64,000 bases of DNA, taken from contig CM055897.1 of assembly GCA_029582155.1 (NCBI GenBank), positions 10,034,482-10,098,481 on the forward strand. The letters run 5' to 3'. The stretch comes from Panopea generosa. Lineage: Eukaryota; Mollusca; Bivalvia; Adapedonta; Hiatellidae. A program made the translations under genes and the position numbers. The notes under the pieces were generated by a model. The model was not told where the DNA came from, did not search any database, and was given only the letters and a program-made list of their open reading frames with translations. Shown piece after piece: positions 8,644-64,000 of the stretch (its first letter is position 1; every line of letters starts with the position of its first letter).

Positions 8644-8685
8644 TATACAAAATGTTATTTAGTCGGCATGAGGCATAACATACCG

Positions 8686-12114: not shown

Positions 12115-12228
12115 TGATCAAGACGTGTACACCAACTCTCTGCTTTACCGATGTATGCTACGTAACTATATACAGTTACATGTGCTTGTGAAATGACACT
12201 AGGTATATAGGTGTCAAGTGTGATATTC
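12115..12228 (+). pseudogene. EGF-like exon with in-frame TGA at the fifth cysteine
   Basis: A T-rich tract and CAG acceptor precede it and C|GTAAGT follows. The exon is 114 nt with phase 1 at both ends, as usual for shuffled EGF modules. Translation shows cysteines in EGF order: KTC, TLC, DVC, YMC, then L-stop where LC is expected, then VKC before the donor. The TGA lies at 12188-12190. Everything else, including the exon length and the donor, is conserved. The simplest reading is a recently disabled exon of a multi-EGF extracellular protein. Readthrough, skipping of this symmetrical exon or recoding are alternatives that need transcript data. Confidence 0.65.
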
Positions 12229-12564: not shown

Positions 12565-13400
12565 TTTCTCTCGTAACAGGTTACAGAACTGTTATAGTGC
12601 AGGTGAACATGCAACTCTCATCAACTCGTATACATTGTTACATAATATATATATATATATAATGAACGTATGTTACAAGCACTATTACGCCGGTTCAAAC
12701 GACTAATCGCTAAACCATGATGATATCATGCCAATAGAACAAACAACAACTACATATAAAGTGGTAGTTTTCAGATTATAATTCCATTTAATCAACACAT
12801 CACTTCTGACAAATGAAATATATAGCATGCATCGTCAGAATATTTATCATGATTCGAGCAATGCATAGCACATGAACATCTGTCGTATAATTTCTCCTGC
12901 TAATCAGTTTATAATAATGTTATAATCTAACTTGGGAGTTCATTTGTAGTTAAGTAACATGCAGTTACTAATATAACATGAATGATAATATTCATTTTTC
13001 AGAGATCGATCCGTGTAATCCAAACCACTGTGGTAGTTTTTGTGCATGTAAAGCCAATAGTAACGAGTACACCTGCGCGTGTCTCCCCGAATACAAAGGT
13101 TTCAACTGAGAGTCTCGTAAGTAACCAAGTGTAATTTACGGATACATAATTACATAAATTCCTCACAGTTACCACGAGTTAATGTAATCTACACGACGTG
13201 AATATCGGCTGTCAGCGCACCTAATCAGAAGACACATATATTTATTGATGTGGTTAAATAAAGATGATGATTTTATTATTACATTATACGGTACACGTCA
13301 TGATACTGATGGGTAATTTAAAGGTGTATTCATTGATCATATTGTATCGTATATAACATGTCGTGGATGAATAATGTTGATAATTGAATACATGTATTCC
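12565..13400 (+). repeat. Duplicated segment: EGF exon plus flanking introns (copy 1)
   Basis: The intron before the exon (from the ACAGGTTAC block near 12573) aligns with about 46880-47320. The exon and downstream intron (to the block containing TCGTGGATGAATAATG near 13362) align with 58437-58940. The two copies are therefore paralogous, and the second has been split by the gypsy element G2. Confidence 0.7.
13003..13116 (+). pseudogene. EGF-like exon with in-frame TGA at the sixth cysteine
   Basis: The acceptor TTTTTCAG precedes it and C|GTAAGT follows. It is 114 nt, phase 1 to phase 1. The peptide begins IDPCNPNHCGSFCACK, continues to NEYTCACLPEYKGFN, and then has TGA where the final Cys should be, followed by GAG TCT C. 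IDPC, the Y-T-C-x-C block and the G-Y/F-G turn are classic EGF signatures. All six half-cystine positions are recognisable; only the last is lost. It is a member of the same array as 12115 and 14628. Confidence 0.75.
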
Positions 13401-14627: not shown

Positions 14628-14739
14628 AAATTGATCCATGAAATCTGGACCCCTGTGGCAGTCATTATTCGTGTACAAACAATGGTAGCTTTCACCTGTC
14701 AGTGTCGCCTTGAGTATAAAGGTGTCAACTGTGAGACTG
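14628..14739 (+). pseudogene. EGF-like exon with TGA at the first cysteine and a frameshift
   Basis: The acceptor TCTTCAG precedes it and G|GTAAGT follows. The 112-nt length breaks the frame. It reads IDP, then TGA in place of the first Cys, then NLDPCGSHYSCTNNGSF. One extra C near 14694 shifts the frame, and the second part then reads CQCRLEYKGVNCETG to the donor. The EGF cysteine pattern is otherwise complete. It is non-functional as read, but clearly homologous to the exons at 12115, 13003 and 58437. Confidence 0.75.
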
Positions 14740-14894
14740 GTAAGTAATTAATATATGGATTAAACTGGATACAAATACGAAGTGAATTTGGTTAACATAT
14801 GTTTACTTCGAGAAGGAGTGACTTTGTTCCGAATAACTTAAATTCACACGCACATGCCATCGTGTTCACGACGTCCGCGAGCTTTATGTTCGAC

Positions 14895-22213: not shown

Positions 22214-22417
<204 letters not shown>

Positions 22418-22593
22418 TATAAATGTATATACACACAAATACATACACATACATGTCAAAACACATATGCAATAATTATATAGATATATATCAAATAATG
22501 AATATGTTAATTACAGCACCCTTGTCACAATTTATGTTTACATGATTTCATTTTCATTCTATATCCTCTTGTATCCTAGGAAATTAATACATA

Positions 22594-23067
22594 TTATGTC
22601 ATAATATTGTGGACCGTTTTCAAGAAAGTTTTGAAGCATTGCACCCTAGTTTTATCATCTATGTTAAAGGAGACAAACCCACTGAACATTTCGAGTAGTT
22701 GTAATTCCGGTGTATAAGCACACAATTTTGCATAATTTTCCGGGCCCAACAATCGTGACAGGTTAACCCATAACTTAGACCGTATATAGTCTTTATGATT
22801 GCAAAACAAAATTATATGAAGTGCAATATTTTCAGTTGCTAGGTTACAAGTTTTACATATTTCTTCATATTTTTTAGAAAAGAATTTAGAGAACAGTATG
22901 AATGCTGTAGAGCATTGTATTTTGCATATTTTAAATTCTTGACTAAATTTCCACAGAGTACATGGTTCGTATTTTGAATGAACAAGCAAAAATTGGCTTA
23001 AGGTAGCGTCGCATAAGAGTCTGTTTCTCCAGTCAAACTCTACCGTTTTATGGATTGCGATTTTCAT
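22594..23067 (-). pseudogene. LINE B C-terminal region of ORF2
   Basis: It overlaps the end of the reverse transcriptase frame by 4 nt at 23064-23067, consistent with a one-base frameshift near the junction. It carries a zinc-knuckle-like pattern (CKTCNLATENIALHIILFC) around codons 84-102, as found at the end of many LINE ORF2 proteins. It ends at 22594. The function of this region in the family is nucleic-acid binding by analogy. Confidence 0.65.
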
Positions 23068-25313
23068 CGATTTTTTCCATATATTTTGAGAAGGGAATTC
23101 TCCGTTTTTGAATAGTCTGTTAGATACTTGGTTAAGCTGTACCGACCTAATAATCTATATATATCAGGCATGAATCCTTTCATTTTTAAGGGTATGGAAA
23201 AGTATGATGTAAGGCTACGGGAAAATACTTGTTTAATTTTGAATTTTGAGTTGAGCCGACACAATTGCCCAAGTAACAGTAATGTTCTCTTGTCAATAAT
23301 ATGTTTAATAGGGTAAATACCCAGACAGCTTAAAGCAATATCTGTTCTTGATCCTGTCGGTATATTTTGAATACGCTTAACGCACTGTCGATGAGCCCGT
23401 TCTAGGGGACATAACTGATTGTCTGTGAGATCATTCCACAGTTCACTCCCATATAGTGCTTTGGGAAGAACAACCGTTTCATATATACGCTTTGCTGTTA
23501 GGGCGTGTACTCCATTTCTATAAATTCCACAGTCAGCAATAAGGAAAAATGTTTTTCTTAATTTAGTACAACTTTCTTTTATGTTTTCATTTAATGATAG
23601 GGATTTGTGGCATGGTACCCCTAGATGTAGATAGCTATCCGTTTCTGCAACTTCATCATTGCCTAGTTTCCATTTGCGTTGTGTGTGCACTTTTTCATTA
23701 AAAACAACGACTTTGCATTTACTGGCATTGTATATGTATCGTTCGTTTTGTGAATTCACATAACACAACTTGAGGAGGCTGTCTAGTCCGCGTTTGACGT
23801 TTGAAATAACTACCATGTCATCTGCTGAAGTTGGACATCCACAATGTATATCATATATCTTAAAACAATATTCACTTTTTTCAATTTCGTACATCAGGTG
23901 ATTAATGAAACCGAGATAGAGGTAGGGACTAAGACACTGGCCCTGGCGGGTTCCTTGTAATATGGGGAACCAGTCCGATGTATAGCCTTGTGACTTTACA
24001 CAACTAGAGCATTCTACGAAAAATGATGCAATCGACTTGAAAAGTGAAATATCGATGCCAGTTTTAAATAATTTAAGTAGCAACAGGGAAATCCATGCCC
24101 GATCGAACGCTTGTTTTGCGTCTAAGAAACAGGTGTAGATTTGTGAATTGTTTTCATCTGCATAGTTTATGCATTCACGTAACATATATGATGTCATGAG
24201 ACAGTTGACATTTTTCTGAAAACCTCCTTGCGAGGGATTAAAGCTCAATTTTCCATCCTTTTCAATCAGCTGAATTAAGATTTTTTCATAAAGTTTTAAT
24301 ATGCATGAACACAATGAGATGGCTCTATAGCTATTTGGGTCATTTTTCTTTTTGTTTCCGCCTTTAAATAGTGTTATAATTATACCTTTTTTCATTTCTG
24401 CGGACGTATGTGAAAAAGCAAGCATACAGTTAAACAGTTTAATTATCACCTGCTGCAGTAAAACACCGCCATGTATGATATTTTCGTAAAATACTTTATC
24501 GTTCCCGCAGGCTTTAAGTTTTTTACAGTAACTCAATGCATTTAAAGTCATTTTCTCGTTAATAATATGTTGTCTACCATATTTATGAGATAAATTTTCT
24601 TTTAGCTTAATTAGTTCGCATTCCACTTCCGATTTGTAAGTTGGATTGAATGATGCGTCTTGACTAGGTGAGTAAAGCTCACTAAAATAGTTTTTCCAAC
24701 CCGTGTTAATTAGCTTCGGCTCTTTTAGGATAGTACCGTTAAAATTCATTTCGAAACCCGAGGCATATGACTTTTTGTTTCGACGATTATTTATAAGCTT
24801 CCAGAATTCATTGTTGTCACATTCTGCTGCAGAATCAATTTCTGCATCCTGGCTCTCTAAAAACATTAACACTGCTTCTCTGTGGAAACGTCGAAAAGAA
24901 CATTTTGATTTTTTATAATTTTGATATGAAAGTGAATTGGTGTCATTTGGCTTATTTTCGTTTAACCATGTGTAGCGTTTTGCTTTCATTTCATTATGTA
25001 GGTACGTCAGTTCGTTATTCCAATATGGTTTTATGTATGGTTTAAAACGTACCTTTGGAATATATAAGTCTGTTGCTAGGTTAACTATTAGCACAATGGC
25101 CGAGTACAAATCGTCAATTTCTCTAGTATCACATATATCAAGTTTTTTTGCGCATTTTAACACATCACTATTTTCTAAGAATTGTTTATAAGAATCTAAC
25201 TGTACCTTTTTCACATTTCGCCAGTTTATAATACGGGTATTTAATGTTTCCGTTTCTGTAACAGTTTTTATAGAATACGTGCAAACAATGGGGCGGTGTG
25301 TGGATACATTCAA
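23064..25313 (-). pseudogene. LINE B reverse transcriptase (long open frame)
   Basis: A 749-codon open frame. It begins with the end of the endonuclease (NVSTHRPIVCTYS). A linker follows, then the reverse transcriptase blocks: KKLKACGNDKV, IITLFKGGNKKKNDPNSYR, NPSQGGFQKNVNC, CFLDAKQAFDRAW with the first catalytic Asp, QGTRQGQCLSPYLY, and SADDMVVISN as the catalytic box. Box 5 is SADD rather than the usual Y/FADD. The thumb shows DSYLHLGVPC and KALYGSELWND. It is split from the upstream and downstream frames by single frameshifts, so the element is dead but young enough to keep 749 codons open. The clade was not determined. Confidence 0.85.
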
Positions 25314-25989
25314 TGCCTTGTCATCAAATATTTGACAGTCGGTAATAGCAGCTCCTGCACAAAAATATGATCTATAAGTGTTTCTCTGTCACTGTTATAG
25401 GGAACATTACTGAACTTCGATCCTCTGCATAAGGCAAGTGTATTAACTGATTTAAGATCAAATTTGTTTGTAAGCTGTAATAGTAATTTACCTCTTGAAT
25501 CTAAATTAAAGTTTGTTGCAATGCGTTTAGATTTAAGTTCAGTATTGTAATCACCTATAACAAACAGAGAACCCTTATCTTGATATGTACAAATGATATT
25601 TTCTAATTCTTCAAGGTATTGATTATACAACCGCATAGGGTGGTTTTTACATGGCAAGTATACTTGAACTATATATGTGTAACGACCGGGAGCTGTCATG
25701 ATTTGAATGCCAATAAAAGTATCACAGTTAAGGTCTAAAGGGGTCACAATAGGGTTCAAATCTCTATGCCATAATAAAGCGAGACCACCTTTACCGACTT
25801 TTCTACCCGATACGCTGTCTAGATCAGGGTCAGATAAAGCATAACTACTGTAGTCAGTGTTTATACTATCCGAAAAGCGGAGATCTTTTCTAAAGAGCCA
25901 GTGTTCTGATATTCCACAAACATCTATTTTATATTTATTGAGAAAGTCAGCCAGATAGCTAGCACTAGACATAATGCATAAGACATATT
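25310..25989 (-). pseudogene. LINE B endonuclease domain, 5'-truncated
   Basis: The open frame extends to 26035 but the part above about 25989 is antisense LINE A. The genuine segment reads SSASYLADFLNKYKIDVCG, then ISEHWLF with the catalytic Glu, KGGLALLWHRDL, SLFVIGDYNTE with the catalytic Asp, and TLIDHIFV near the end. The first motif of APE-type endonucleases is missing at the truncated 5' end. A one-base shift near 25370 moves the rest of the domain into the next frame. Confidence 0.8.
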
Positions 25990-27855
25990 GACTGGATAAA
26001 GTTATTTTATAACGACGCACAAAGTTGTGTGTCAAATAATGGTTATGCCTCAGAGTTTTTTAATATAAAAAGAGGAGTTAGGCAAGGATGCCCATTGTCT
26101 CCATATTTGTTTTTATTAGCTATTGATATTTTATATAAATCTGTAAATATTACTAATACTATTGAAGGCGTAAAGGTACGCAACATCATTATAAAATACA
26201 CTGCTTTTGCAGATGATGCCACTTTTCTGTTAAATGGAAATCAGTCTTCATTTGAATCTTTAATATTATTAATTGACAGGTTTAGCTCCATTTCCGGTTT
26301 AAAGTTAAATTCAAAGAAATCGATTATTCTTCGTGTAGGCTCTTTAAAGAATTCTATTGAAATATTTTGTAAAAATAAGAAATTTGTTTGGACTAATGAA
26401 AAAGCAACAACATTGGGAATTGTTTTCACAAACGATAGAAATAAAAATAAAGATTTTAACTACAGTTTAAAAATAGAACAATTTCAAAACTGCCTTTATA
26501 ACTGGAAAAAACATAAATTATCGATTTTAGGTAAAATCACAGTAATAAAAACATTTGCACTACCCAAACTTATTTTTCCACTAACAGTGCTTGAATCACC
26601 TACCATGAACACTATAAACCTAATAAAAAATAAAATGTTCGAATTTCTTTGGGAGGGAAAACCAGACAAAATTAAGCGAAAAACAATTATTCAAAATATT
26701 GAAAACGGTGGTATGAAGATGATAGATATAGAGCTTTTTATACATTCAATTAAGGCAAGTTGGGTTAAACGATTAACAGATGTAAACAATAATGGCGAAT
26801 GGAAGTATACATACATGTCTTCATTGGAAAAATATGGCGGAAACTTCATCTTTGAGAGTAATTTTAATTTTAAAGATAGTTGTTCTATGTTCAACGAAAC
26901 GCCGTTTTTATGTAACATTATTGAATCATGGTCAAAAATAAATTTTAACTGTAATATTGAAGATGTTAATCTACTAAAACAGTACATATGGAATAATTCT
27001 TTCATAAAACATAATGGCAATTTATTATTTTACAAAGCATGGCTACAGCTAGGAATTAAAACAATAAATGATATATATGATTGTAGACACAAGACATTTT
27101 ATAATTTTGAAAGATTAAAACAATTGTACAATATAAGTAATTCAGAATTTATAAACTATTTCACTATTATTCGAAGCATACCAAAAAAATGGAAACAGAT
27201 TATTAAAACAGAGAATATACCAGAAATTGAACAAACACCTTTATTACACCAAGTGAGAAAATGCAACTCTCCAACTAAAATGTTATATAACATGCAAATT
27301 AAATTAATTAATATTGATAATGAAATAAAACCTTATCTTCAATGGGAAGAAATATTCAACAACCTCAACTGGAAAACTATTCATTGTCTACCTTTCAAAA
27401 TTACAATAGACACAAAACTAAGATCATTTCAATACAAATACATTATGAGAATTTTACCTACTGACCAATTTTTATCTAAATGTAAATTAGTTAATTCAAG
27501 TCTAAGTGATTTTTGTGATAGACATCCTGAAACTATGAAACATTTGTTTTGGGAGTGTCATTTTGTAAGAACTTTTTGGACAGAAGTCCATAATTTTTGT
27601 ATTGCAAACAATCAATCTTTTAACATCTGTTATCAAAACATATCGTTTGGGTTTTGTAACTCATCAAAACTTAACTTACTAAACTGTATAATTTTACTTG
27701 CTAAATATTTTATTTTTAAAAACAAATACACGAAAACAATTCCCAGTATTGCAGCTATCAAACATTACTTACAAAAAACAAAGCAAATAGAAAGACTTAT
27801 TGCAATAAACAAAAACAAACTCGGGTCACATGAAATTAAATGGGGAAATATGTAA
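25990..27855 (+). pseudogene. LINE A ORF2, second part: reverse transcriptase core to C-terminus
   Basis: It resumes with DWIKLFYNDAQSCVSNNG, followed by RGVRQGCPLSPYLF and the FADDATFLL catalytic box near 26200-26225. The thumb (LGIVFTND, LGKITVIKTFALPKLIFP) and long C-terminal domain follow. A Cys/His motif is near the end (FCDRHPETMKHLFWECHF). It stays open for 608 codons to the TAA at 27853-27855, in contrast with the broken first half. The block holding the first catalytic Asp (F-x-D-F-E-K-A-F-D in LINE C) is missing because of the LINE B event. Confidence 0.85.
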
Positions 27856-34099: not shown

Positions 34100-35235
34100 T
34101 AGTCCAGAGACGGTAAAAACATAATACTATCAAGTTGAAGTGTTGTATAAACATATGCCTGGAATGCATACTTAAGTTTGGATGTTTGATTAATACATGA
34201 CCAGAAGTGTATAACCAAAATTGAGACGTACATATTCAGGTGGAAATGTTGTTGTTTTTTTTTTGCGAATACAGTGTCAGCAGTGAATACTTTAAATTGA
34301 GATATTTTGTGAATACAGGGTCAGTAGTGCATACTCAAGTTAAAATGTTTTGTGAATACAGTGTCAGTAGTGAATACTCAAATTGAATTATTTTGTGAAT
34401 ACAGTGTCAGTAGTGCATACTCAAGTTAAAATGTTTTGTGAATACACGGTCAGTAATGAATACTCAGGTTGAGATATTTTTTGAATACAGAGTCAGTAGT
34501 GAATACTCATGTTGAAATGTTTTGTAAATACAGGGTCAGAAGTCCATACTCAAGTTGAGATGATTTGTGAATACACGGACAGTAGTGCACACCAAAGTTG
34601 AAATATTTTGTGAATACAAAGACAAGACTACATACTCAAGTTGAGATATTTTGTGAATACAGTGTCAGTAGTGCATATTCAAGTTGAAATGTTTTGTGAA
34701 TACAGTGTCAGCAGTGAATACTCAAATTGAGATATTTTGTTAATACAGTGTCAGTAGTGAATGCTCAAGTTGAGATATTTTGTGGATACTGTGTCATTAG
34801 TGAATACTCAAGTTGAAATATTTTGTGAATACATGGTCAGTAGTGCACACCAAAGTTGAAATATTTTGTGAATACAAAGACAAGACTACATACTCAAGTT
34901 GAAATATTTTGTGAATACAGTGTCAGCAGTAAATACTTAATTTTAAATGTTTTGTGAATACACGGTCAGCAGTGTTAGTAGTGAATGCTAAAGTTGAGAT
35001 ATTTTGTGGATACTGTGTCATTAGTGAATACTCAAGTTGAAATATTTTTTTTGAATACAGTGTCAGTAGTGCATACTTAAGTTGAAATGTTTTGTGAATA
35101 CAGTGACAGTAGTCAATACTCAAGTTGAAATGTTTTTTGCGAATACAGGGTCAGCAGTGAATACTCAAATTGAGATATTTTGTGAATATAGTGGAAGTCG
35201 TGAATACCCAAGTGGAAATATTTTGTGAATAAATG
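34100..35235. repeat. 43-bp minisatellite array, about 26 copies
   Basis: The unit contains TTTTGTGAATACAGTGTCAG and TAGTGAATACTCAAGTTGAA. The first units (34100-34230) are strongly degraded. Shorter relatives are at 46290-46700 within the duplicated block. Confidence 0.9.
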
Positions 35236-46879: not shown

Positions 46880-47320
46880 GTTACAGGTTACTAAAATGCT
46901 ATAGTGCAGGTCAACATGCAACTTTCACAGTTTGAGTCATACACATCGTTTCACAAAATATATTGTAATGATAAAAGTGTATTACGAACTAAAATATCAA
47001 GATACTACTAATACAGAAGCGATCATCTCATATAAGAAATAACAAACAAATATAAAATAGTAGTTTTCAGATTTTAATTTTATTTACTCAGCATGTGGCA
47101 ACCGCTATCGACCAATGAAGTATGCATTTTATTTAACATGATCCAAGTTATTAATAGCACAATTAAGAATATCTGCGATCTTATCTCACCTGCAAATCAG
47201 TTTTAATACTGTTAGTCAACCGTGTGTATTTAAAATGTAGTTCAATAACAGACTAATTAATATGCCTAATATTACTTTAATGATAATATTAATAGGACAC
47301 TATTCATATTTGTTTTGCAG
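46880..47320 (+). repeat. Duplicated intron upstream of the split EGF exon (copy 2)
   Basis: Aligns with 12565-13002. Shared blocks include ACAGGTTAC, CTATAGTGCAGGT followed by ACATGCAACT, TAGTAGTTTTCAGATT-type, and CACCTGCAAATCAGTTT versus CTCCTGCTAATCAGTTT. It ends in the acceptor TTTTGCAG. Confidence 0.7.
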
Positions 47321-47332
47321 AAATCAACCCGT
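47321..47332 (+). pseudogene. EGF-like exon, 5' fragment, cut by gypsy element G2
   Basis: The first 12 nt of a phase 1 exon follow the TTTTGCAG acceptor and would encode I-N-P after the split codon. The last four bases, CCGT, recur at 58433-58436 on the far side of G2. The remaining 102 nt are at 58437-58538. Together they make 114 nt, the same length as the exons at 12115 and 13003. Confidence 0.8.
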
Positions 47333-47718
47333 TGTTGTATATTGACAAATGTATTACTATTATACTATGGCACTTGTATGATTTATGTTAAAGACGTGTT
47401 AGTTCATCAGGTCTTGTTATCTTCATCAGGTCTTGTTATCTTTGTATAAAATCAATGGGTTTGGGAGTCAGTTGGTCAGCTTGGGACAGCGTCCAGGGAG
47501 GGAAAGCGTTGACAGCATGCTGTGATAAGAAATGACGAATTGCTATTGTTTATACATGATATGCTGGGAGTATGTCTGTGAGTCGGAGTGCCAAGTTAGT
47601 TAGAAAATTGATTTCGACCGAACAAGATCTAAAACTATTACCTCTCTCTGTAAAACTGTAAAATAAATATTAAAAAAACAAAACAACTTATATTTAGTGA
47701 TATTCCCCATATATAACA
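47333..47718 (+). repeat. G2 5' LTR (386 bp)
   Basis: It runs from TGTTGTATATTGAC to ATATAACA just before a TGG primer site. An 18-19 bp tandem duplication (TCATCAGGTCTTGTTATCT twice) lies at about 47404-47441. The stretch 47434-47630 matches 58201-58397 with about ten differences by eye. Confidence 0.75.
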
Positions 47719-47730
47719 TGGTGGAGAATC
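47719..47730 (+). promoter_or_regulatory. G2 primer-binding site
   Basis: TGGTGGAGAATC directly follows the 5' LTR end. Its complement ends in CCA, as a tRNA 3' end does. The tRNA species was not assigned. Confidence 0.6.
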
Positions 47731-47743
47731 TAAATTAATAAAA

Positions 47744-48607
47744 ATGGAAAGTATTGCGAAATATATTCGAAAATTTATACAGAAGATGCCAATAAGATTG
47801 TGTTTGACTTTCGCTTTGTTGTACTCTCAATAAGACTGGACGCAATGGTACCAGACGATCAGCTGCGTTTCAATAACAAGTTGATCGGCCAGCCAAAATT
47901 TGGTTTCAAATTTTGGAAAATAAAGACACATGGAAAGAAATTGAACACAATTTTATAAAAATAAGTATGTGCAAAGTCACGGGCCATCCATGCACATGGA
48001 AAGGGAGAAGTTTCATAATACATGTATAAAGTTATTAAATGGACAGCCAAATGAGGCTTTCTTTAGTGATATTTTGGATCATGGCAAAAAGTTACAGAAG
48101 TCAGAAACAGAAATGACTTTGAAGGGTGTCAAAGGTCTGCCAGAGAAATTTGCTTTCTTTGTTCGAGCAGGAAGTCCTTCTAATATTGAGAATGCATTTG
48201 AGGCCGCGAAAATGGGTGAGACGTATGGTTACCGCATTCACAGCAGTGAATATCCAGTTGCAACGGCAGGAAAGGGACATGGTCTCGAGAACAAGGTTGA
48301 CCAACTCTCAGCACAAGTTGAGCAGTTGCTAAGGCAGAAACCAACAAACCGTGAAGAACACGTTATCACATGCTTCTCTTGTAGAGGATCGGGACATTCC
48401 AAACGCTCGTGTAATTGGGCTAGGGGTGAAGCCCAACCAGGACAACAGTTTCAATTATGCGAACAATTCGGACATGTAGCCATGGATTGTTTCAGATATA
48501 ACCGACCAATCCATCAGCAGGGAAACGGGAGAACCCCAGGGGTTACAGGCCGCGTTCCCCGGGGAGGCCAAAGAATACACCGCGGACGAGAAGCATTCCA
48601 TCAGTAA
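47744..48607 (+). pseudogene. G2 gag with CCHC zinc knuckles
   Basis: The ATG at 47744 begins MESIAKYIRKFIQ. A frameshift near 47790 is needed to continue into a DAMVPDDQLRFNNKLIGQ block, and another break occurs before the 212-codon frame at 47969. That frame carries the capsid C-terminal region, a coiled stretch (ENKVDQLSAQVEQLL) and a nucleocapsid knuckle, CFSCRGSGHSKRSC, in full C-x2-C-x4-H-x4-C spacing. A second knuckle (LCEQFGHVAMDC) has lost its first Cys. It ends in a Gly/Arg-rich tail at 48607. Gag forms the particle and packages element RNA; this copy is broken. Confidence 0.8.
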
Positions 48608-48739
48608 GAAAAACATTATATAAAATGTGATACTTTACAAGACAAATCTTCTAGTAATAATTCAGAGGTACATGGCACTAAAGGTACATTTAATTTCTTA
48701 TAATTTGATTGTTTATTTTCTAAAACACAAATCTCTGCA

Positions 48740-49000
48740 TAAGTAGACACTGGTAGTTCGGTGAATTTAATGTCGTACAAACTTTTTTATCATTACCTAA
48801 CCATTGCAAAAGTGCTTTGGCATCAATTGATAACAGTAAAATTATTCTTGAAAATAATCAAACAATTGACATTGATGGTGCAGCCACAGTGGAGTGTTAT
48901 GTAAAAGGTACAAATCATATATTTGATGTTTATGTTCTTTGGGATATTTCACATCCATTGATACTAGGTGTTGAGTTTTTTTTTGTAATTCAACTTTTAT
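48740..49000 (+). pseudogene. G2 aspartic protease
   Basis: VDTGSSVNLM near 48745-48775 is the D-T-G active-site motif. After a frame change the 70-codon frame from 48817 reads ENNQTIDIDGAATVECYVKG, then DISHPLILGVEFF. The H-P-x-I-L-G block is the conserved C-terminal motif of gypsy proteases. It is expected to be a pseudogene because the two motifs are in different frames. Confidence 0.7.
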
Positions 49001-49373
49001 TTCATCAATGTATCAATGTTATTACATAAACGATACAAAACATGACAATGTTTTTTTATACATTCTGGTTATAATAATTCGCATAGTTCAGTTTTAATTG
49101 CATATATATCAACACAGTCTCAATAACAAACAACATCTCCATGTTTTTGCCAGTAAGTGAAAAATCTACTTAAAATGATAATATGATAAAAACAATATTT
49201 TTTTTTTTTGTTGAAAAAAAAAACAGAGGAAAAGAAAGGAAGATTTTGATTTTTTATGACTTATAATGAAAAGAGTGAAAAAAAGAAAAAAATGATTGTC
49301 TCGTCCATGTAAATATCATTAACAATTCCTAACAGCTTTCCCAGTTTTGAATATTATTGTCGTTTATAATATT

Positions 49374-52300
49374 TTAACGGAGATAAAGTCTCCATTTTGC
49401 TTCATGAGTTTCTAATGTGTCATGTTTGAGAGCTATTTCTCGTTCTATCTCGATTCTTCTTTCCATATACTTTTTGAACAATTGTATTTTTGGAACTCTT
49501 TTTGTGATTTGCTTACAAATATGAAATATTTTGCACATATAAGAATAAAGTTTTTTAAATTATTTATACTAGGATTGTTTGTTACAATTCCGAAGGAAAC
49601 TGTGTCTCTGTATATATATATTTATATATATATATATATATTAAAGTTTATATCGTTTAAATATGTCCTTAGCTCAGTCCAGAATGTTTGCACATGAAAG
49701 CATTCCCAGAACAAATGATTAGTTGTTTCTATATAACCATTACAAAATTCACACAAGTTTGAATTTACTATTTTAAATTTCATCAATGACTTATTTGTTG
49801 GGATTATGCGCATCAAGTATTTGTATTGGAAGTTTCTTAATTTTTGATCAATTGTAGATTTGATTGGAATAGTGTATATTTTTTTCCAGTCCAACTGAAT
49901 ATTTTGAAAGTCTGACTCCCATTTTATTTCAGATTTAACTTTAGTTTTTTTGTTCATTTGTCATTTGATACCTTTATAAAAATTGATTTGTTTGTTTGCT
50001 TAAATTAGTTTTTGTAATAGGTTAACATAGTTTGGTATCGATTGGTTCATCTTTTAATCTTTCTTTCCATTCGTTAGGTATGCTTGATACTAATTGGTTA
50101 TATCTGAGAAATTCTGAACTAGATAATCTATATAAAGTTTTAAGCTCGCTGAAATTATAAAATCTTTTTTTTCTAAAATCATATATGTTTTGTATATATT
50201 TGATTCCCTTTTCTGACCAATCAATGTAGCATAACGTATTAAGATTTAAAGTTATATTTGTGTTATTCCATAAAAATTTCTTTATTTATGTTCATTTTCC
50301 TATCAAACTTTTTAATTTTGGTCCATGATATTATGATTTCCTTTAGAAAGTTATCGTTTTTATACATTTTCAAAACATATTTTTCTTGCAAGTTACTTTC
50401 AAAAATGAGTTTACCACCATACTTATTGAGTTTATTTAGATATATGACTTTCCATTGACCGGAATTACTGTTATCAAGTAATCTTTTTATCCAACTTGAT
50501 TTAAGAGAGTTTATGAACATTTCAATATCAATCATTTTTAGACCTCCATTTTCATAGTCTTGAGTTAGTGTTGTCCTTTTTATTTTATCAGGTTTTGAGT
50601 CCCATATAAACTCGTACATCGTGTTTATTATTGTTTTAATTATACTTGGTGGTGGGTTTGGTAAAACTGACAATGGATAAATCAGTTTTGGAAGTGCATA
50701 TGTTTTAATGACAGTAATTTTCCCTAGTAGAGTACGCTTTCTATGTTGCCAACTTTTCAAACAATTTTTAAATTCTTCAAGTTTAGGAACTATATTTAGT
50801 GCAAACATTTCTTTTGTATAAGTGCTAAACACTATTCCAAGCGTTTTCGTTTTTTCAGAATTCCAGATGAATTTTTTATTTTGACAAAAAGTAATATTAG
50901 AGTGTGTCAACCAACCAGCTCTTAATATTGTACATTTTGAAGTATTTAACTTTAGTCCGGAGATACTACTGTAACTATCTAGAACATTGATAAGTGTTTC
51001 AAATGATTTTTTTTAACCATCAGTAAAGAAGGTTGCATCATCAGCAAAAAGAATATTTTTTATTTCACAATTGCCTACGACGACCCCTTTTATATTTTCA
51101 TTCTCTGATATTTCATATGACAGGAGTTCAATACAAATGATAAACAAGTACGGAGATAATGGGCAACCTTGTCGAACACCTCTCTTAACTGGGAATAAAT
51201 CAGTCATATGACCATTATTTGTCACACTATTTTGTACATCATTGTAGAAGAGTCGTACTCAGTTTATGAGCGTTTCTCCAAAATTAAAATGTTTCAATTT
51301 TTTTATACATAAATTCATGGTCAATACTGTCAAAAGCCTTTTCAAAATCTGAAAAAAATATGAGTGCTGGTAATTGATTTTCTTCTATGTGATCTAAAAT
51401 TTTTCTTAATACTCTTATATTTTCTCCAATATATCGCCCTTTTATAAATCCGGTTTGTGTATTATTTATTATTGAGTTTAAAACATTTTTTATTCTATTT
51501 GCTATGGTTTTCGATGCTATTTTATAGTCTACATTTAACAGACTAATCGGACGCCAATTTTCTAACATAATATTATCTTTACCTTGCTTTGGTATTAATG
51601 TTATTAAACTTTGTTTTTGCAAAGCAGTCATGTTTTTAGATTCAAGAGAGTAATTTAAAGAGTTGATAAGAAATTGCTTCATGTCGTTCCAAAAAATCTT
51701 ATAAAATTCTGTTGTTATTCCATCTGTTCCAGGACTTTTCTGATTACTCATTTTTTTAAGAGCAATTGCACATTCATATTCTGTTAACTTTCCTTCACAC
51801 ATTTGGTTTTCAATGTCATTAAGCTTTTTAATTCTGTGGTTAAAAAAAACGTAATTTGCCTCTGTGCACTCCTTTCTTTTATATAGTTTTGCATAAAATT
51901 CTTTCTGTGCATTAAGAATTTCATTTTGGTCTGTGGTTATCTCATCTTTTACTTTTAACCTTGATATAATTTTAGATTCTGACTTTTTTCTTTTCTAGAT
52001 TTGCAAAAAAACTTTGTATTTCGTTCACTATATTCCACAGTGTCTGCCTTTGAACGTATGATCATGCCATTTATTTTATTGTCAATTATTTCATTTAGTT
52101 CATATCTACAGTTTTCTAATTCTGTTTTTAATATTTCAATCGTTATGCTATCAGTTGTTTTTCCTATTTCTGTTTCTAATTTGTTTATTTTGATATTAAT
52201 TTGGCTTTCTTTTTTCTTTTTCCCTTTCTTTTTGGCTGATGAATATCTAATTGTTTCATTTCTTACCGTTCCTTTGATAAGTTCCCATAATGTATTTGGG

Positions 52301-53141
52301 TTTGAATCTTTATTTATGTTAACTGTCTCTGCGATACTTTTTCTGATATTAGTTTGATATTCTTTTTCTAATAGTACACTATTGTTCATTTTAAATATAC
52401 CTGCTCCTTTACTAAGTTTTAAAAAGTCTAAAATTATATTGACTACTGAATGGTTTGATTTTTTCTAACCGGGTTTTATTTTACAATGCTTAATGCAAAT
52501 TGTTATGTTTTGAGAAATTAAGAAATAATCTAACCTGCAGAATATTGGTGGTTTTGTGCTAGAGTGCCAAGTAAATTGTTTTTTAAAAGGATGTTTGATT
52601 CTCCAAATGTCGCTCAAAGTAAAAGTATCAATTATAGAGTTTAGTTTTTGTCTTACATTTTTATTTGTATCGCATCTACCATTTTTTTTGTCCATGTCAA
52701 CGTCTATAATAGTATTGAAATCACCAGCAATAACAAATGTTTTATCCTCATTTTCACCAATATATTTTTCTTATGTGTTCAGTAATGATAAGTCGTCTTT
52801 ATTAGGACCGTATACATTAATAAGAGTCAAACATGTTTTATTTATATCTATATCTAGTACTTGTTAACGACCTACAATTAGCTCGCTGTATTTATTAATT
52901 TTGTACGATAGATTTTTATTTAACAGTATAGCGACTCCTTTGCTATTTGAACTAGTTCCACTGAAAAAGGTTTTGCCTTCCCATTCTCGTTCCCATATTT
53001 GATTTGTATCAGAGGTTGAGTGTGTTTCTTGCAAAAAGCATATTGCGTTGTTTTGATCCTTTAACCAATGAAACATCTGTTCACGTTTAACTTTATTACT
53101 TAATCCTCGGACATTGAATGCACATAGTTTAATATTCATAA
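49374..53141 (-). pseudogene. LINE C ORF2, endonuclease to C-terminus, many frame breaks
   Basis: Ordered pieces from high to low coordinates follow. Endonuclease N-terminus at 53141-52864: LCAFNVRGLSNK, CFLQETHS. Endonuclease C-terminus at 52695-52465: FTWHSSTKPPIFCRLDYFLI. Linker at 52389-51955. Reverse transcriptase at 51802-51284: NQKSPGTDGITTEFYKIFWN, TLIPKQGKD, NWRPISLLNVDYKI, TQTGFIKGRYIGEN, and FFSDFEKAFDSIDHEF with the catalytic Asp. A second reverse transcriptase piece at 51225-51013: RGVRQGCPLSPYLF and the FADDATFF box. Thumb at 50910-50263. C-terminal zinc region at 49957-49642: CEFCNGYIETTNHLFWEC. The frame then meets a (TA)n expansion at 49613-49641 and resumes with VSFGIVTNN to the stop. 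Confidence 0.85.
49613..49641. repeat. (TA)n expansion inside LINE C coding sequence
   Basis: TA repeats interrupt the ORF2 C-terminal region between NDINFN and TVSFG, giving an Ile-Tyr run in one frame. Confidence 0.85.
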
Positions 53142-53889
53142 TACAGTAATATATGTTTATCCATAAACTGGGAAAGTTGTTTAAAAATACACGATACAGT
53201 TTGAGTAAAAAAAGAGGCAAAGAAGGAAGATAAATCTAAGTACACTAGGTACATTTTGAGTACATAAAGGTCTTGTACAGTATAAACTTTAAACTTGACA
53301 TAATGATTTTCACAGATCGACACTGTTAACTTTTGTTTATCATTTATAATCTGTATACTGTTATTACAACCACACACAACAGAATGGTTGTGTATTTTGT
53401 AATATATTTAAGAAAAGTAAGAGAAAAAACACTATGACTGACCTTTTCTTAACAAATTTAACAACCCCCCCCCCCCCACCCAAAAAAATCGACTACAAAG
53501 AGTTTTGCCTATAATACTAGTCATTGGAAAAAAATTCACATTAACTTATAAAATGGTGTTATGATTTAACTACTGCTAGACAGAATGATAAATAATTTGT
53601 TTATGGCGAAATTTCAAAACAAAAATAGTATTACATATCAAATTAAAATACATCGCTTACATCACACACACATTCACGTTAACTAACCCTCGCATGAACG
53701 CGTACACACATACATACACGCACCCACAAACTCACTCACGCACAAATAAAATAATATTATATACTACAATAACAGTTGTTATGCTTTTTCACATTATAAT
53801 GACTTGTAAGCTTTGTGATATCCTAACTAAAAACATTTACCAAAACTTTGACAAAAATGATATACCATATTACATCAATTTAAAAAAAA

Positions 53890-53891
<2 letters not shown>

Positions 53892-53925
<34 letters not shown>
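53892..53925. repeat. (CAA)n microsatellite
   Basis: About 11 CAA repeats after an A-run. Confidence 0.9.
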
Positions 53926-54848
53926 AAAACCCACAAAACAAACCAACACAAACTCAATAATAGTGTCCATAATAAGAATTAATGTTTTGTATTACATTTA
54001 ATTGTGAAATACTAATATAAAGTGTAATCCTGTTGTTAAGTAAGCATTATTAAACCCAATACACTCAACTATTATATCTATGTACAACTTTGAAAACAAG
54101 AAAACATATTAACCAAAGCTACATCAATATTAGTGTGCCCTCAATTATTCGTACAGTTGGTTGAGATGTTCCGTAATTTAAAACAAAAGGCGTAACATTG
54201 GAGCATCTATACTATTGATACACTCTTTAAAGGTATATTTAAACTTAAATTATAAGGGGACAGATCATATAAGCGTTAAGCTTCCTTCTGGATCCTTTCC
54301 ACATGTCTAATATTTGAAATGTTTATATTGAAATGTTTGTACAAACATGTATTATTGTGAATAAAATACTGTTCAAACTATTGATACTTGGTTTATGTAA
54401 AAAAAAAAAAATAATCATCATTTTGTGCCTTATGCTATAGAAAACAATATTTTCATGTTTCTAATTTGTTAAATGATATGACACTTGCGGAATGTTCAAA
54501 TGTTTCAAAATACGGCATTGCACTTTGTAGTTTCGACCAGTTTGTTGACAACACCTGTAGTAATATTCTATTTTTATCACGCACGTGAAATATGTTAGTA
54601 GAACAATATGGAGCATTATATCGGTATAGTTTACTGTTTTATAATCCAAAATTAATAGTTTATATAGACTTTTCCCTTCTTTTAAGATATTTTTAAGGAT
54701 TTTATATACAAAATAATAATTAATAATCCCCTATATAACGAAATAGCGAAAATAATGGAGAACAAATCCTTTGTTTCACATGTAAATGAATATGTGAAAA
54801 AGATTATTATTGTAGAATTGAATATATACCATTTCAGATAACCTACCA

Positions 54849-54899
<51 letters not shown>
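54849..54899. repeat. (CT)n microsatellite
   Basis: About 25 CT dinucleotides. Confidence 0.9.
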
Positions 54900-54904
<5 letters not shown>

Positions 54905-55371
54905 TTATTTATGATAAATATATATTATATTTGATAATATTTCTGTTACTTGTAAATATAAATATATAAACATATTCACAATGAATGCTACATAAGTTGT
55001 ACAGTAATTATTATTTTGTTATCATGTCGTGTGCAAAATCTCCTTAAAGAAGGAAATAAAGAGGCCTACATGAACACTCATATTCATAGCATATATATAA
55101 ATTTCTAATTAATCGGATATGCTATAATTATTTACTTTCATTTCACAAACATTTTATAATCCGTGATAACTGATATGCATGTCTAAATTCTAAGTGTGTC
55201 CATTCGAGTAGTGTTCTTTGTAAATTTAATACCAGTGGTTGTGGCTCATGCTCAGGGTAACAAGTCTATTGTTATGCAACAGTATAACGGTGGCAAATCG
55301 TTAGACCTCGTGCTGCATCACTGTATAGGCTATACACTTCATAAAGTTCATGTATAGTCACCAATAAAAGT

Positions 55372-57210
55372 TAGTATTTGTACAGAATTCAATTTTATGA
55401 TAACACAAACGGTTGGGGAAAAGCTATTGAGTTTTTGAGGTCCAGTTATTTTGTAATTGATTTTGACAAGAGTGATAAAAATGTGAGTAAAGCCACAATT
55501 TACTCAAAACAACGAATTTCTTTGCCTCAAAACTCGGAATCTATTGTCTATGGTAAAGTACCAAAACGTTGCCATGAAGGTTATTTAGGTTTCTCTTCAA
55601 GTACTAGCACACACATTGTCAAGAAAAAAAACTATTTATAGCTAGATCTGTAGCAACAGTTCCTTAAAAGCATATGGTACCAGTTAAAATACTGAACCCG
55701 ACCAATGAAGTGGTAATGATTCACAAAAATAAACCATATCAGGTCGTAGATAATTCTTTTCAGTTCATTCCACACAGTGCTACATCAGCTGATACAGTAC
55801 ATCTGAATGTGTGCAGTCATACTAATGTAAAGTTAGGGGTTAACAAGGGAAATGTCCACAGTGACAAATCTGAAAAAAAGAATTTTTTGTCACACTTTGA
55901 TATGAATTTAGATAACTTGTCAATTCAAGAAATAAATGATTTAGGAGATTGTTTATATGGGAACAGAGACATATTTGTTACTGAGGAGAATTCATAGTAA
56001 ACATCTATAATTAAACACCAGATACATTCAAAACGTGGTGCAAAATCTAAACATCAGAGACCATATAAACTTACCCCGAGAAAAAAGAGGTATTACGTCA
56101 TCAGTTAGATGAACTCTTGAAACAAGGCATCACAACATCTGTCAGTGAAAATGAAGATATTCCTATTTCTAGCCCAATTGTATTGGTTTCAAAGCGCAAT
56201 AAACTTAAACAAGTTATTGAACCTGGGTCACGAGAAGCCAGTTTATCACAGTATCGGATCTGCGTTGATTTCAAATATCTGAATACACAAACTCAAGATT
56301 TCCGTTACAATATCCCAGATGTACAAGAACTTACTGAATCATTTACTCAAAGGACTCCTAACTATATATCCGCCATTGATCTGAGTTCAGGGTTCTTTCA
56401 AATACAAATATCCCCAGAGTCTGCTAAATATACTGCATTTAATACATGTTATGTCACGTATAAATTTAAACAATTACCACAGGGTCTTAAAATAAGTCCG
56501 AACAGCTTTCAGCTTTTGATTGGGATTGTCCTTTAAATCTACTTTATGCTATTTAGATGATGTTGTTATCATATCAGAATCGTTTGAACAGCACATGTCT
56601 GATCTTCAAGAAGTATTTGACCGCTATAAAGTTGCAGGTTTAAAATTGTCACCAGAAAAGTGCAAGTTTGCACAGAGAAAATGTATTTTCTTAGAACATA
56701 AGATCCAAAAATGGAATCAGACCACCTACGGACAGACTGAATGCAATATCAGATTTCCCTATTCCCACAAACACAAACTCTTTGAAAAGATTTTTAAGTA
56801 TGATGAATTGGTTCAAGAAATGTTTTAAAATTTTTAGTGCAGTGGCCAATTGCTTGTACAAATTACTTCATAAGGATGTGAAATTTGTTTGGCAAAATGA
56901 ACACCTAATTGCATTTGACCAGTTACGAAACAGTTTGTTAAAGTCTGAGGCACTGGCATTTCCTCAGTACAATTTACCATTTATTTTGTCTGTGGATACT
57001 TCCAGCCAAGGTATTGGATATATGTTACAGCAAAAACAGCCAACCAGTTCTGGCGAGGAATTGTCTATCAGAGATGTGAAATTTGGTTCAAAGTTATTAT
57101 CTAAATGGCAACAATCTTATGGACCAACAAAGTTGGAACTTTTAGGTATGGTCTCTAGTTAAATTGACTGTGCTTCTTATTTAAGGGGCAGACATTTCAT
57201 TGTTGAGTGT
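55372..57210 (+). pseudogene. G2 pol: reverse transcriptase and RNase H, first part
   Basis: The pol N-terminal region reads ISLPQNSESIVYGKVPK near 55525 and NEVVMIHKNKPYQVV near 55707. The reverse transcriptase shows SPIVLVSKRN, ICVDFKYLNTQTQDF, then YISAIDLSSGFFQIQIS with the catalytic Asp, LPQGLKISPNSFQ, and after a frameshift at about 56525 CYLDDVVIIS, the YLDD box. GLKLSPEKCKF marks the thumb. After another break near 56790-56830 the RNase H begins: PFILSVDTSSQGIGYML with a catalytic Asp, and GPTKLELLGMV with the catalytic Glu position. It reads to HFIVECAHQA, where the SINE interrupts. At least five frame breaks were seen. Family: Ty3/gypsy. Confidence 0.85.
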
Positions 57211-57211
57211 G

Positions 57212-57226
57212 CTCATCAGGCATTAA
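57212..57226. repeat. SINE target-site duplication, left copy
   Basis: CTCATCAGGCATTAA, identical to 57489-57503. Confidence 0.95.
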
Positions 57227-57488
57227 TTTTTTTTTTTTTTTTTTTTTTTTGAATGGGGTTTAACGCCATTTTCAACACATTTCAGGTTATATATGGCATA
57301 TCCAGTTTTACTGGTGGGGGAAGACCTCAGACTGAGTCAGACTGAGTAGAACCACCGTCCTTCCGCAAGTAACTGGAAACTTTCTCACATAAAGTTTTTG
57401 GAACGAGCGGGACTCGAACCTACGACCATAGCGGTGAGAGGTAAGTGATCTTGAGACGGCGCCTTATACCACTCGGCCACGGAGGACC
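57227..57488 (-). mobile_element. tRNA-derived SINE inside G2 RNase H
   Basis: On the - strand the element starts with a class-II-tRNA-like head. The A box TGGCCGAGTGG is the complement of 57469-57479 and the B box GGTTCGAGTCC is the complement of 57410-57420. Between them is a long variable-arm-like stretch, as in tRNA-Leu/Ser. A body follows with the TTGAAAATGGCGTTAAACCC block, then a 24-nt poly-A (complement of 57227-57250). A perfect 15-bp target duplication flanks it, so the insertion is recent relative to G2. SINEs are transcribed by RNA polymerase III and moved by a LINE. The partner LINE is not identified here. Confidence 0.95.
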
Positions 57489-57503
57489 CTCATCAGGCAT
57501 TAA
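57489..57503. repeat. SINE target-site duplication, right copy
   Basis: CTCATCAGGCATTAA, identical to 57212-57226. Confidence 0.95.
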
Positions 57504-58200
57504 AACCGCTATTTCAAAAAAGTCTGAAAGGCGCTATATATGAGCGAGGTTTGCAAGAATTTAATTTTGAAATTCAGTACAAACCTGAAAAGCAAATGGT
57601 AGATGCTGATGCATTATCCAGGGGTCGACCTGACCTCCAGAATCAAGTCAAGATGAAAATGACCTCTATTTCCCATATGTAACTGAGCAAACTGGTAAAA
57701 TAACTCTACCAAATGGTTATACACTCCGAGAGATAATGAGTACTGAAAAGGTCAACAGGGTCAACAATGTTTCTTTTTATCCACCAGCAGACTGTGTTAT
57801 GAAACATGAGCCTCTTATTGACTATGATGCTGATACAGAGGTATCTCACATTCCTAAGTCACGGAATCTAAAAATAGACACAGACATTCCGAAAAACAAA
57901 GACTGGCCACAGAGGGTGGACTAGGGTCTGAAGATAGCCCCTTACAATCACTTTCAACAAGCAATGATTGTTCCGCGATGACGGATAGTGATAATAGTTT
58001 GACCGAGAAAAGCAAATAGAACTATTTTCAAAGTTCAAATTTAGCTCAGAGATAATAGGTCAACAACAAGTAAATGACCCAGACTTATATCACTTGATTA
58101 ATTACTGAAATGCAAACCAGTTGCCCAAAATCAAAAGAAGACGGGTTTTGCTTGAATCAAGTGATTATATTTTATTTGACACGTTGTTGTTTCGAGGTAT
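57504..58200 (+). pseudogene. G2 pol: end of RNase H and truncated integrase N-terminus
   Basis: After the SINE, RNase H continues with KPLFQKSLKGAIYERGLQEF, FEIQYKPEKQMVDADALSRG. A linker of about 150 codons follows, with frame breaks. Then comes an integrase N-terminal stretch (QQQVNDPDLYHLI in one frame, VLLESSDYILFDTLLFRG in another). This joins directly to the interior of the 3' LTR at about 58200. The zinc-binding domain, the catalytic core and the polypurine tract are gone. Confidence 0.75.
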
Positions 58201-58432
58201 TGTTATCTTTGTATAAAATTAATGTGTTTGGGAGTCAGTTGTTCAGCTTGGGACAGTGTCCAAGGAGGGAAAGCGTTGACAGCATGCTGTGATAAGAAAT
58301 GACGAATTGCTATTGTTTATACATGGAATGCTGGGAGTATGTTTGTGAGTCGGAGTACCAAGTTAGTTATAAAATTGATTTCGACCGAACAAGATCTGAA
58401 CTTATTTTGATTTATATTACCAAAATATAACA
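58201..58432 (+). repeat. G2 3' LTR, partial
   Basis: 58201-58397 matches 47434-47630. The end (CTTATTTTGATTTATATTAC..ATATAACA) aligns with the last bases of the 5' LTR after a gap of about 55 bp. The first 100 bp of the LTR are missing at the fusion with integrase. Confidence 0.75.
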
Positions 58433-58436
58433 CCGT

Positions 58437-58538
58437 GTTATCCAAATCGCTGTGGTACATATCGTGCATGTTAGGTCAACGGCGTCGATAACACGTGCCC
58501 ATGTCTCCCTGGTTACACAGGTGTCAACTGCGTGTCTC
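58437..58538 (+). pseudogene. EGF-like exon, 3' fragment, with in-frame TAG
   Basis: It continues the frame of 47321-47332: CYPNRCGTYRAC, then TAG, then VNGVDNTCPCLPGYTGVNC, VS to the donor C|GTAAGT at 58539. All six EGF cysteines are present. The stop replaces a non-Cys codon between the third and fourth cysteines. The intron beyond resembles that after the exon at 13003. Confidence 0.75.
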
Positions 58539-62700: not shown

Positions 62701-63213
62701 CTTCAAGGTTTCTTGGACAGAACGATAACAAAATTCGGTTCCATTGTCCGATAAAAGTACGAAAGGCGTTGAATGCCTTGGGATTATCTCCTGAATTATT
62801 ATATGACTGATTGAATCTGCGCTTTTATCGTTCAGTAGAAAAGCCTCTGGCCAGCCACTGTATAAGTCCATAAAACTTTAAATATGTTTGTTGTTAGACA
62901 GCGTTATTGGCAAAGGGCCAGATATGTCCATTGCGACTTTAGCAAAAGGGAACGTATGTTGATCTGTGTCTTGAAGTCGTGCTTTAATCGCCTTAAGATT
63001 TCTTTCTTTACATATCAGACAACTCCCTACGTAATCACAAAGGTCTTTAAGCATATTTGGCCAGTAATATTTTATCTTGATGGTGTCAAAACATTTATTG
63101 TTCCCCATATGCCTATTAGTTAGATGAAATTGATCCATGACATCAGCCTTCAAGTGATTACGAATGAATAACCTTAGTTGAGGGTTATCTTTTACATCAG
63201 ATATGTAATACAA
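62640..63213 (-). pseudogene. G3 integrase zinc-binding domain and catalytic core
   Basis: 63213-62878 carries the HHCC module (HLTNRHMGNNKCFDTIKIKY, YWPN, CLICKERN), then KVAMDISGPLP with the first catalytic Asp. Frame breaks follow, but VLLSDNGTEFCYRS near 62757-62716 supplies the second Asp. SFYHPESNGKIER near 62672-62634 supplies the Glu. All three catalytic residues of D,D-35-E are therefore present, though in separate frames. Confidence 0.8.
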
Positions 63214-64000
63214 TAAAACATCTATAATGATGTAATTATTCGACCGTTTTACCAGTATTCAATTGATCTATAATATCAGTTATTACTTCATCTTTCGATT
63301 GTCCAGTGACCATGTTGAAAGACTTGAATGTTTTGACACGTTCTGCCGGTGCTTGTCTAAGGTTTAAATCAACACCCGTATATGCCCTTGTGTTTAGCTG
63401 ATTTGTGTTTACTGTCTTTATCTGAAAACTCTAGTCATTTACATCTTCTAATGCTATCTCCTCAATTGAACCTACTGCTAATGCGTTTGATTTTGGTATT
63501 CTAGACAATAAATCTGCTGAAACACCTTTACGACCTTCGATAAATTCAATCTTCGCGTTATATGCTGATATTGCTAATGACCAAAGCTGTATTTATTTAT
63601 TTTGATTTGGTGATTCTAAAACATGTTTTAACGGCTTATGATCGCAAAATAATGTGAAAAAATCCCCATTTAGATAATGATCTAACTTTGACAGTGAAAA
63701 GTAAATTGCAAAACATTCTCTAACTATCGTTGGCCATTTTTGTTGTGTTTTACTTAATTTGTGTGATAAGTAATATATCGGCAACAGATTACGTCTATCT
63801 AAATCCGAAATACTTTCATCTACTGGTTGTGATGACACACTTCCTATCGCATAATTACTGGCCTCAGTATGTAAAACATACCGTTTTGCTGGATTTAGAT
63901 GTGCAAGCAGTGGAAGTGAACCAAGACGTTCTTTTATTATTTCAAAAGCATTTTGACAGTTTTTATCCCACTTAAATCTTGCAAACTTCTTTGTCAATAT
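63214..64000 (-). pseudogene. G3 RNase H and connection to integrase (partial)
   Basis: A 134-codon frame (63997-63593) reads KFKWDKNCQ-like FARFKWDKNCQNAFEIIKER, VLHTEASNYAIGSV, IYYLSHKLSKTQQKWPTIVR, ECFAIYFS and TLFCDHKPLKHVLESP. The Asp usual in V-x-x-T-D-A-S is Glu here (HTEAS). After a stop near 63593 the translation continues IEFIEGRKGVSADLLSRIP, the usual end of RNase H. The reverse transcriptase would lie beyond 64000. Confidence 0.8.

What the first reader, a model, noticed from the sequence alone, without database searches (positions are those of the whole stretch)
47321..58538. A gypsy element splits an EGF exon; removing it restores exactly 114 nt
The acceptor and 12 nt of exon lie at 47321-47332. 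G2 runs TG...CA from 47333 to 58432 with CCGT on both sides. The exon resumes at 58437 and reaches a GTAAGT donor at 58539. 12 + 102 = 114 nt, identical to the EGF exons at 12115 and 13003, and the reading frame and cysteine pattern join correctly. This independently fixes the element boundaries, the 4-bp target duplication and the exon's ancestry.
Basis: seen in the sequence. Interest (0 to 1): 0.75.

Follow-up and report, generated by a model that had tools for sequence, protein, structure and literature searches.

The report
Old retrotransposon inside a dead exon
A decayed gypsy-type mobile element sits inside one exon of a run of EGF-type exons; leaving it out in the computer gives back a 114-base exon, but that exon has a stop codon, so this is an ordinary and well-recorded old insertion rather than a new kind of thing.

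Summary
The structure is real and base-exact. A gypsy-type element lies at 47333-58432 (TG...CA) between two copies of CCGT. Without it, 47321-47332 plus 58437-58538 make a 114-nt EGF exon, 84 of 114 identical to the exon at 13003, and the introns align straight through the junction. The boundary is confirmed by other LTRs of the family in the same genome: 11 of 20 fetched have exact 4-bp flanking repeats, against 6 of 380 mismatched pairings.

Two corrections. The joined frame is not open: it has TAG just after the third cysteine. The other three EGF exons found in the window (12115, 13003, 14628) are also dead; complete ones lie at window-relative 118-147 kb. And the 11.1 kb is not one gypsy element: it holds a nested LINE (about 48981-55426) and SINE (57227-57488), its 3' LTR is truncated, and no integrase was found in the pieces scanned.

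The LTRs differ by K 0.07-0.11, so the insertion looks old and an empty allele unlikely. Whether it killed a working exon or landed in a dying one is undecided. Ordinary; low interest.

The parts
47311..47320 (+). splice-acceptor end of the upstream intron (TGTTTTGCAG)
   Evidence: intron homologous to that before the 13003 exon
47321..47332 (+). first 12 nt of the EGF exon, ending with TSD copy 1 (CCGT, 47329-47332)
47333..58432 (+). decayed Ty3/Gypsy-type LTR retrotransposon with nested insertions (11,100 nt)
   Evidence: TG...CA, CCGT on both sides; LTR family with 4-bp TSDs; RVT_1 and RNase H Pfam hits, sub-threshold zf-CCHC
47333..47718 (+). 5' LTR, 386 nt, with a tandem 19-nt duplication (47403-47442)
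47945..48607 (+). gag remnant with a zinc-knuckle match just under Pfam's cut-off
   Evidence: family copies by protein
48971..48980 (+). nested LINE target duplication, copy 1 (TTGAGTTTTT)
48981..55426 (-). nested LINE (endonuclease and RT; L1/Tx1-like is a recalled label), about 6.4 kb, left edge uncertain within a T run
   Evidence: RVT_1, Exo_endo_phos; 64-66% identical to stretches of the LINE at 20.2-27.6 kb
55427..55436 (+). nested LINE target duplication, copy 2
56069..57162 (+). pol remnants in broken frames: RT (56069-56536) and RNase H (56695-57162)
57227..57488 (-). nested SINE-like repeat (poly-T at the left; tRNA-like stretch at the right by eye), 15-nt TSD 57212-57226 and 57489-57503
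   Evidence: read; related copies in the neighbourhood
58191..58432 (+). 3' LTR, 242 nt, lacking about the first 90 nt and about 50 nt further in, against the 5' LTR; start approximate
58433..58436 (+). TSD copy 2 (CCGT)
58437..58538 (+). remaining 102 nt of the EGF exon, with an in-frame TAG, then GTAAGT donor at 58539
13003..13116 (+). paralogous uninterrupted exon (114 nt), TGA at cysteine 6
12115..12228 (+). second-type EGF exon (114 nt), TGA at cysteine 5
14628..14739 (+). third dead exon of the 13003 type (112 nt, TGA at cysteine 1 and a frameshift)

Best explanation
A Ty3/Gypsy-type LTR retrotransposon integrated 12 nt into a 114-nt, phase 1-1 EGF exon, duplicating the 4 bp CCGT. The exon belongs to an array of EGF exons; the four members found in this window are all disabled, while complete members lie about 60-90 kb downstream of the insertion. 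After integration the element decayed: a LINE and a SINE inserted into it, part of the 3' LTR and apparently the integrase region were lost, and its two LTRs drifted apart by 7-11%. Shown: the insertion, its boundaries, the TSD, the paralogy of the exon, the stop codons, the nested insertions. Inferred: that the exon was once spliced into a message, that the integrase was lost rather than never present, and that the element has no present function.
For: Exact coordinates and length. The empty-site alignment through the junction matches paralogues at 13003 (E 6e-43 in the 264-kb search) and at window-relative 146699-146832 (134 columns, 72%, no gap, E 1e-14). The LTR search gave 42 rows, which make 38 places other than the window element (a lower bound). 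I fetched 20 of those 38; 11 of 20 have exact 4-bp repeats against 6 of 380 swapped pairs. The two closest gag matches elsewhere lie beside LTR hits (C4:33722xxx and C14:3097xxxx). LTR divergence: 14 of 212 sites, K 0.069, over the ungapped block; 25 of 242, K 0.111, over the whole 3' LTR.
Against: No second haplotype, individual or species was available, so the empty site is paralogous, not allelic. The 3' LTR's first few nt and tail align loosely. Nine of the 20 fetched LTRs showed no exact 4-bp repeat. Pfam found no EGF domain in the single joined exon, nor at its cut-off when paired with a complete exon; the exon is called EGF from its cysteine pattern and its paralogues (PF00008, E 5e-17, for the six complete exons joined).
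Confidence: 0.95

Rival explanations
1. The insertion hit a working exon and was itself the inactivating event; the TAG arose later in the freed sequence.
For: All six cysteines are kept. The exon has no gap against the 13003 exon while the rest of that alignment has all 16 gap runs (chance of none in the exon 0.037). Pairwise dN/dS against 13003 is 0.53 (dS 0.49, dN 0.26, 35 codons). About 0.18-0.27 stops are expected in the exon since insertion for K 0.074-0.111, so one later stop is unremarkable.
Against: The three other EGF exons found in the window are dead without an insertion. Differences from 13003 are spread over codon positions 9, 8, 12, and identity in the exon (84/114) is like that in the aligned introns (323/435). 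dN/dS against the complete exon at 146713 is 0.82.
Confidence: 0.4
2. The element landed in an exon that was already unused, so nothing was lost.
For: The array as found in the window is decayed throughout, and the exon's substitution level equals that of the introns.
Against: No gap in the exon, six cysteines kept, dN/dS 0.53 against 13003. Three complete downstream exons also show dN/dS 0.81-1.05 among themselves, so a relaxed pattern does not prove loss of function.
Confidence: 0.5
3. The two exon halves are unrelated stretches that happen to sum to 114 nt.
For: None found.
Against: Intron and exon homology runs through the junction; the one strong match elsewhere in the window is a sister exon.
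Confidence: 0.01

Closest known systems
Ty3/Gypsy LTR retrotransposons
   Same: Two LTRs with TG...CA ends, 4-bp target duplication, gag then RT then RNase H, solo LTRs elsewhere in the genome
   Different: In this copy no integrase was found, the 3' LTR is truncated and a LINE and a SINE are nested; the clade within the group was not determined
TE-interrupted exons and pseudogenes (e.g. PMC9783078, on TE insertion-related gene inactivation in an aphid; seen only as a search listing with the opening of the abstract)
   Same: A mobile element lies within a coding exon (for the paper: as its title suggests)
   Different: Here neighbouring exons are dead without insertions, so the element need not be the cause
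Notch/Delta/DNER-type EGF repeats
   Same: Six-cysteine modules on phase 1-1 exons; the six complete exons joined match Delta-like 1 and Notch chains and a DNER-related protein of Physella acuta at 40%
   Different: Only six complete exons seen in the 324 kb read; the gene as a whole was not identified

Membership tests
Ty3/Gypsy LTR retrotransposon | paired LTRs with TG...CA ends | tested here: met
   the start of the 3' LTR is missing, so its own TG is not seen
Ty3/Gypsy LTR retrotransposon | short fixed-length target duplication (4 bp here) | tested here: met
   CCGT at both ends; 11 of 20 family LTRs, control 6 of 380
Ty3/Gypsy LTR retrotransposon | pol order RT, RNase H, integrase (integrase after RNase H separates it from Copia; recalled) | tested here: inconclusive
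   RT then RNase H found; no integrase seen in this copy, and 57922-58190 could not be scanned because of stops
Ty3/Gypsy LTR retrotransposon | gag with CCHC zinc knuckle | tested here: inconclusive
   PF00098 E 0.0012, 19.3 bits against a cut-off of 20.8
Ty3/Gypsy LTR retrotransposon | tRNA primer binding site next to the 5' LTR | not tested
   Sequence after 47718 begins TGG; not compared with tRNAs
EGF-like exon | six cysteines in EGF spacing | tested here: met
   profile score 49.8 bits with a model that included this exon; Pfam found no EGF family in it alone
EGF-like exon | phase 1-1 exon with splice sites | tested here: met
   acceptor at 47320, donor at 58539, 2 nt + 37 codons + 1 nt
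EGF-like exon | open reading frame | tested here: not met
   in-frame TAG; hence filed as a dead exon

The most novel reading that the evidence does not exclude
The array is a fast-turning-over set of EGF exon cassettes: two complete exons of one type are only 65% and 57% identical in protein to a third, the three have pairwise dN/dS 0.81-1.05 with all cysteines kept, and sister exons have died one by one. The gypsy insertion would be a time mark for the loss of one cassette, younger than the duplication that made it (LTR K 0.07-0.11 against 26% exon difference).
Probability: 0.2. Interest if true: 0.35.

Novelty: new member of a known kind. Interest (0 to 1): 0.15.

Why it matters
It is a clean worked example of reading an old insertion from sequence alone: the paralogous empty site, the TSD and the LTR family agree to the base. 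It also shows that a restored exon length and cysteine pattern do not imply a restored reading frame. It opens no new question about mechanism.

Tried and rejected
A recoded-TGA (selenocysteine) reading was considered because the three TGA stops in the window's EGF exons fall on cysteine positions (12115: C5; 13003: C6; 14628: C1; read). Rejected: in four complete exons 24 of 29 single-base routes to TGA are at cysteine codons, so three of three is expected (p 0.57); the 14628 exon is also frameshifted and the fourth exon has TAG.

A second TE-split exon was suspected at window-relative 126472, where the exon stops after its first half. The downstream intron resumes within about 170 nt (coordinates), so a deletion is more likely. 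Not tested further.

An intron identity from a lenient global alignment (0.75) was dropped: 20 shuffled controls with the same settings reached 0.64-0.76. The BLAST alignment was used instead; it may still flatter the intron.

Rfam at gathering thresholds (0 hits) and ARAGORN (0) found nothing in the window. Two paper searches were seen as listings and abstract openings only; no paper was opened, and no claim is made that such a case is absent from print.

No dates in years are given: no calibrated rate was at hand. The organism was not identified; a mollusc is only a weak guess from the best named protein match.

Full report
Observation. The acceptor ends at 47320; 47321-47332 is AAATCAACCCGT; the element starts TG at 47333 and ends CA at 58432; CCGT repeats at 58433-58436; the exon resumes at 58437 and meets GTAAGT at 58539. 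Joining the halves gives 114 nt, 84 of 114 identical without gaps to the exon at 13003-13116 and 53 of 114 to that at 12115-12228. Over all 114-mers on both strands of the window the mean match is 28.5 with sd 4.6; after the site itself the best are 84 (13003), 53 (12115) and, on the other strand, 52. With introns attached, the empty site aligns to 12573-13146 over 610 columns (407 identities, E 4e-45), continuously through the junction; the exon part has 84 of 114 matches and no gap, the rest 323 of 435 matches, 61 gap columns and 16 gap runs. A further 181-column match lies downstream.

Independent test of the boundaries. The window's genome is held (1.47 Gb; window at C4:10034482-10098481). 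A search with the 5' LTR (my query began one base late, at 47334) gave 42 rows, a lower bound: 211 candidates, 40 scored. Two rows are the window element's own LTRs and two are short pieces beside one other copy, leaving 38 other places. I fetched 20 of these 38, mostly the best-scoring nearly complete ones, with 50 nt on each side. Eleven of 20 have exact 4-bp repeats directly outside TG and CA, against 6 of 380 when left and right flanks of different copies are paired. So the family makes 4-bp target duplications, and these eleven look like solo LTRs; one of them (L035, TGGT) could instead be the start of an internal region. The other nine are undetermined. Alignment to 13003 alone does not place the junction: the six best positions printed score equally.

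What the element is. Pfam finds RT (56069-56536, E 2.1e-14) and RNase H (56695-57162, E 2.3e-16), and a sub-threshold zinc knuckle in gag. Between gag and RT lies a reverse-strand LINE with endonuclease and RT matches, flanked by TTGAGTTTTT at 48971 and 55427, so about 48981-55426. Other repeats of 9-13 nt were also found between the two stretches compared; this pair was chosen because the gypsy reading resumes there (by eye). After the RNase H match a SINE-like repeat at 57227-57488 is flanked by a 15-nt repeat and has relatives nearby; the tRNA-like reading is by eye, and ARAGORN called no tRNA. Setting the SINE aside, only about 750 nt lie between the RNase H match and the 3' LTR, short for an integrase (recalled size about 1 kb). 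The 3' LTR is 242 nt against 386: about 90 nt are missing at its start and about 50 nt inside. By gag protein 14 rows were found genome-wide, one of them the window's own; two other places reach 73-84% identity, and both lie beside LTR hits, while the rest are 35-59%. The window copy is thus one of few with any gag left.

Age. The two LTRs differ at 14 of 212 sites over the ungapped block (K 0.069), and at 25 of 242 (K 0.111) when the loosely aligned ends are included. One solo LTR (L022) is closer to the 5' LTR (17 of 242) than the 3' LTR is, but it is further from the 3' LTR (27 of 242). Among the 5' LTR and the 20 fetched copies, the 5' LTR is the 3' LTR's nearest, by a small margin. Together with the shared CCGT this supports one insertion, but a later exchange between LTRs is not excluded.

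The exon and its array. The cysteine frame of the joined exon reads INPCYPNRCGTYRAC*VNGVDNTCPCLPGYTGVNCVS. The exon at 13003 has TGA at cysteine 6, that at 12115 TGA at cysteine 5, and a third at 14628 has TGA at cysteine 1 and a length of 112. A profile search of 324 kb (100 kb upstream, the window, 160 kb downstream; matches of 8 bits or more kept) found no EGF exon upstream. Downstream it found six complete ones at window-relative 118230, 119444, 125063, 134884, 140881 and 146713, a half exon at 126472 and a degraded reverse-strand one at 70009. The profile was built from eight sequences of this locus, so its scores are not independent. One complete exon (146713) has a GC donor and the ends of another (119444) are uncertain. 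Genome-wide, the best match by E-value to the 146713-type exon outside this locus is 53% identical (others up to 57%), and to the 125063-type 54% (others up to 59%).

Order of events. For an exon alive until the insertion: six cysteines kept, no gap against 13003 (probability 0.037 if the 16 gap runs fell at random), dN/dS 0.53 against 13003. For an exon already unused: its substitution level equals that of the introns, differences fall on codon positions 9, 8, 12, dN/dS against the complete 146713 exon is 0.82 (13003 against it: 1.5), and its window sisters died without insertions. Three complete exons give 0.81-1.05 among themselves. All these rest on 35-37 codons and are very imprecise. The insertion is younger than the duplication separating this exon from 13003. 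Whether the exon was alive when hit cannot be settled with one genome.

Verdict. A real, precisely described and ordinary insertion of a known kind of element into a now-dead exon.

Noticed in passing
window 17460-27855: ORFs suggest a plus-strand LINE (17460-18182, 20096-21262, then an RT/zf-RVT ORF at 25975-27855) split by another, minus-strand LINE with an RT ORF (23064-25388 and 25310-26059).
   Followed up: partly
window 9328-11354, 14892-16338, 34261-35231: Large minisatellites (55-, 85- and 43-nt units, up to about 37 copies) lie before and between the dead EGF exons; copies related to the 34-35 kb unit also occur upstream of the split exon.
   Followed up: no
window 62878-63258 and 8155-8658, minus strand: Integrase pieces of other retroelements: an H2C2 zinc-binding domain, and a sub-threshold rve match.
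   Followed up: no
G000 C12:30682523 and 30724204 (L032, L031): Two LTR copies 41.7 kb apart share the same flanks as far as printed, which suggests a segmental duplication.
   Followed up: no
window-relative 126472-126519 (C4, in the fetched downstream stretch): An EGF exon that stops after its first half; probably a deletion across the exon end and donor.
   Followed up: partly
window 58421-58440: By coincidence the last bases of the 3' LTR plus the TSD read in the exon frame as ITPC, like the start of some sister exons, so homology searches run a few residues into the element.
   Followed up: yes
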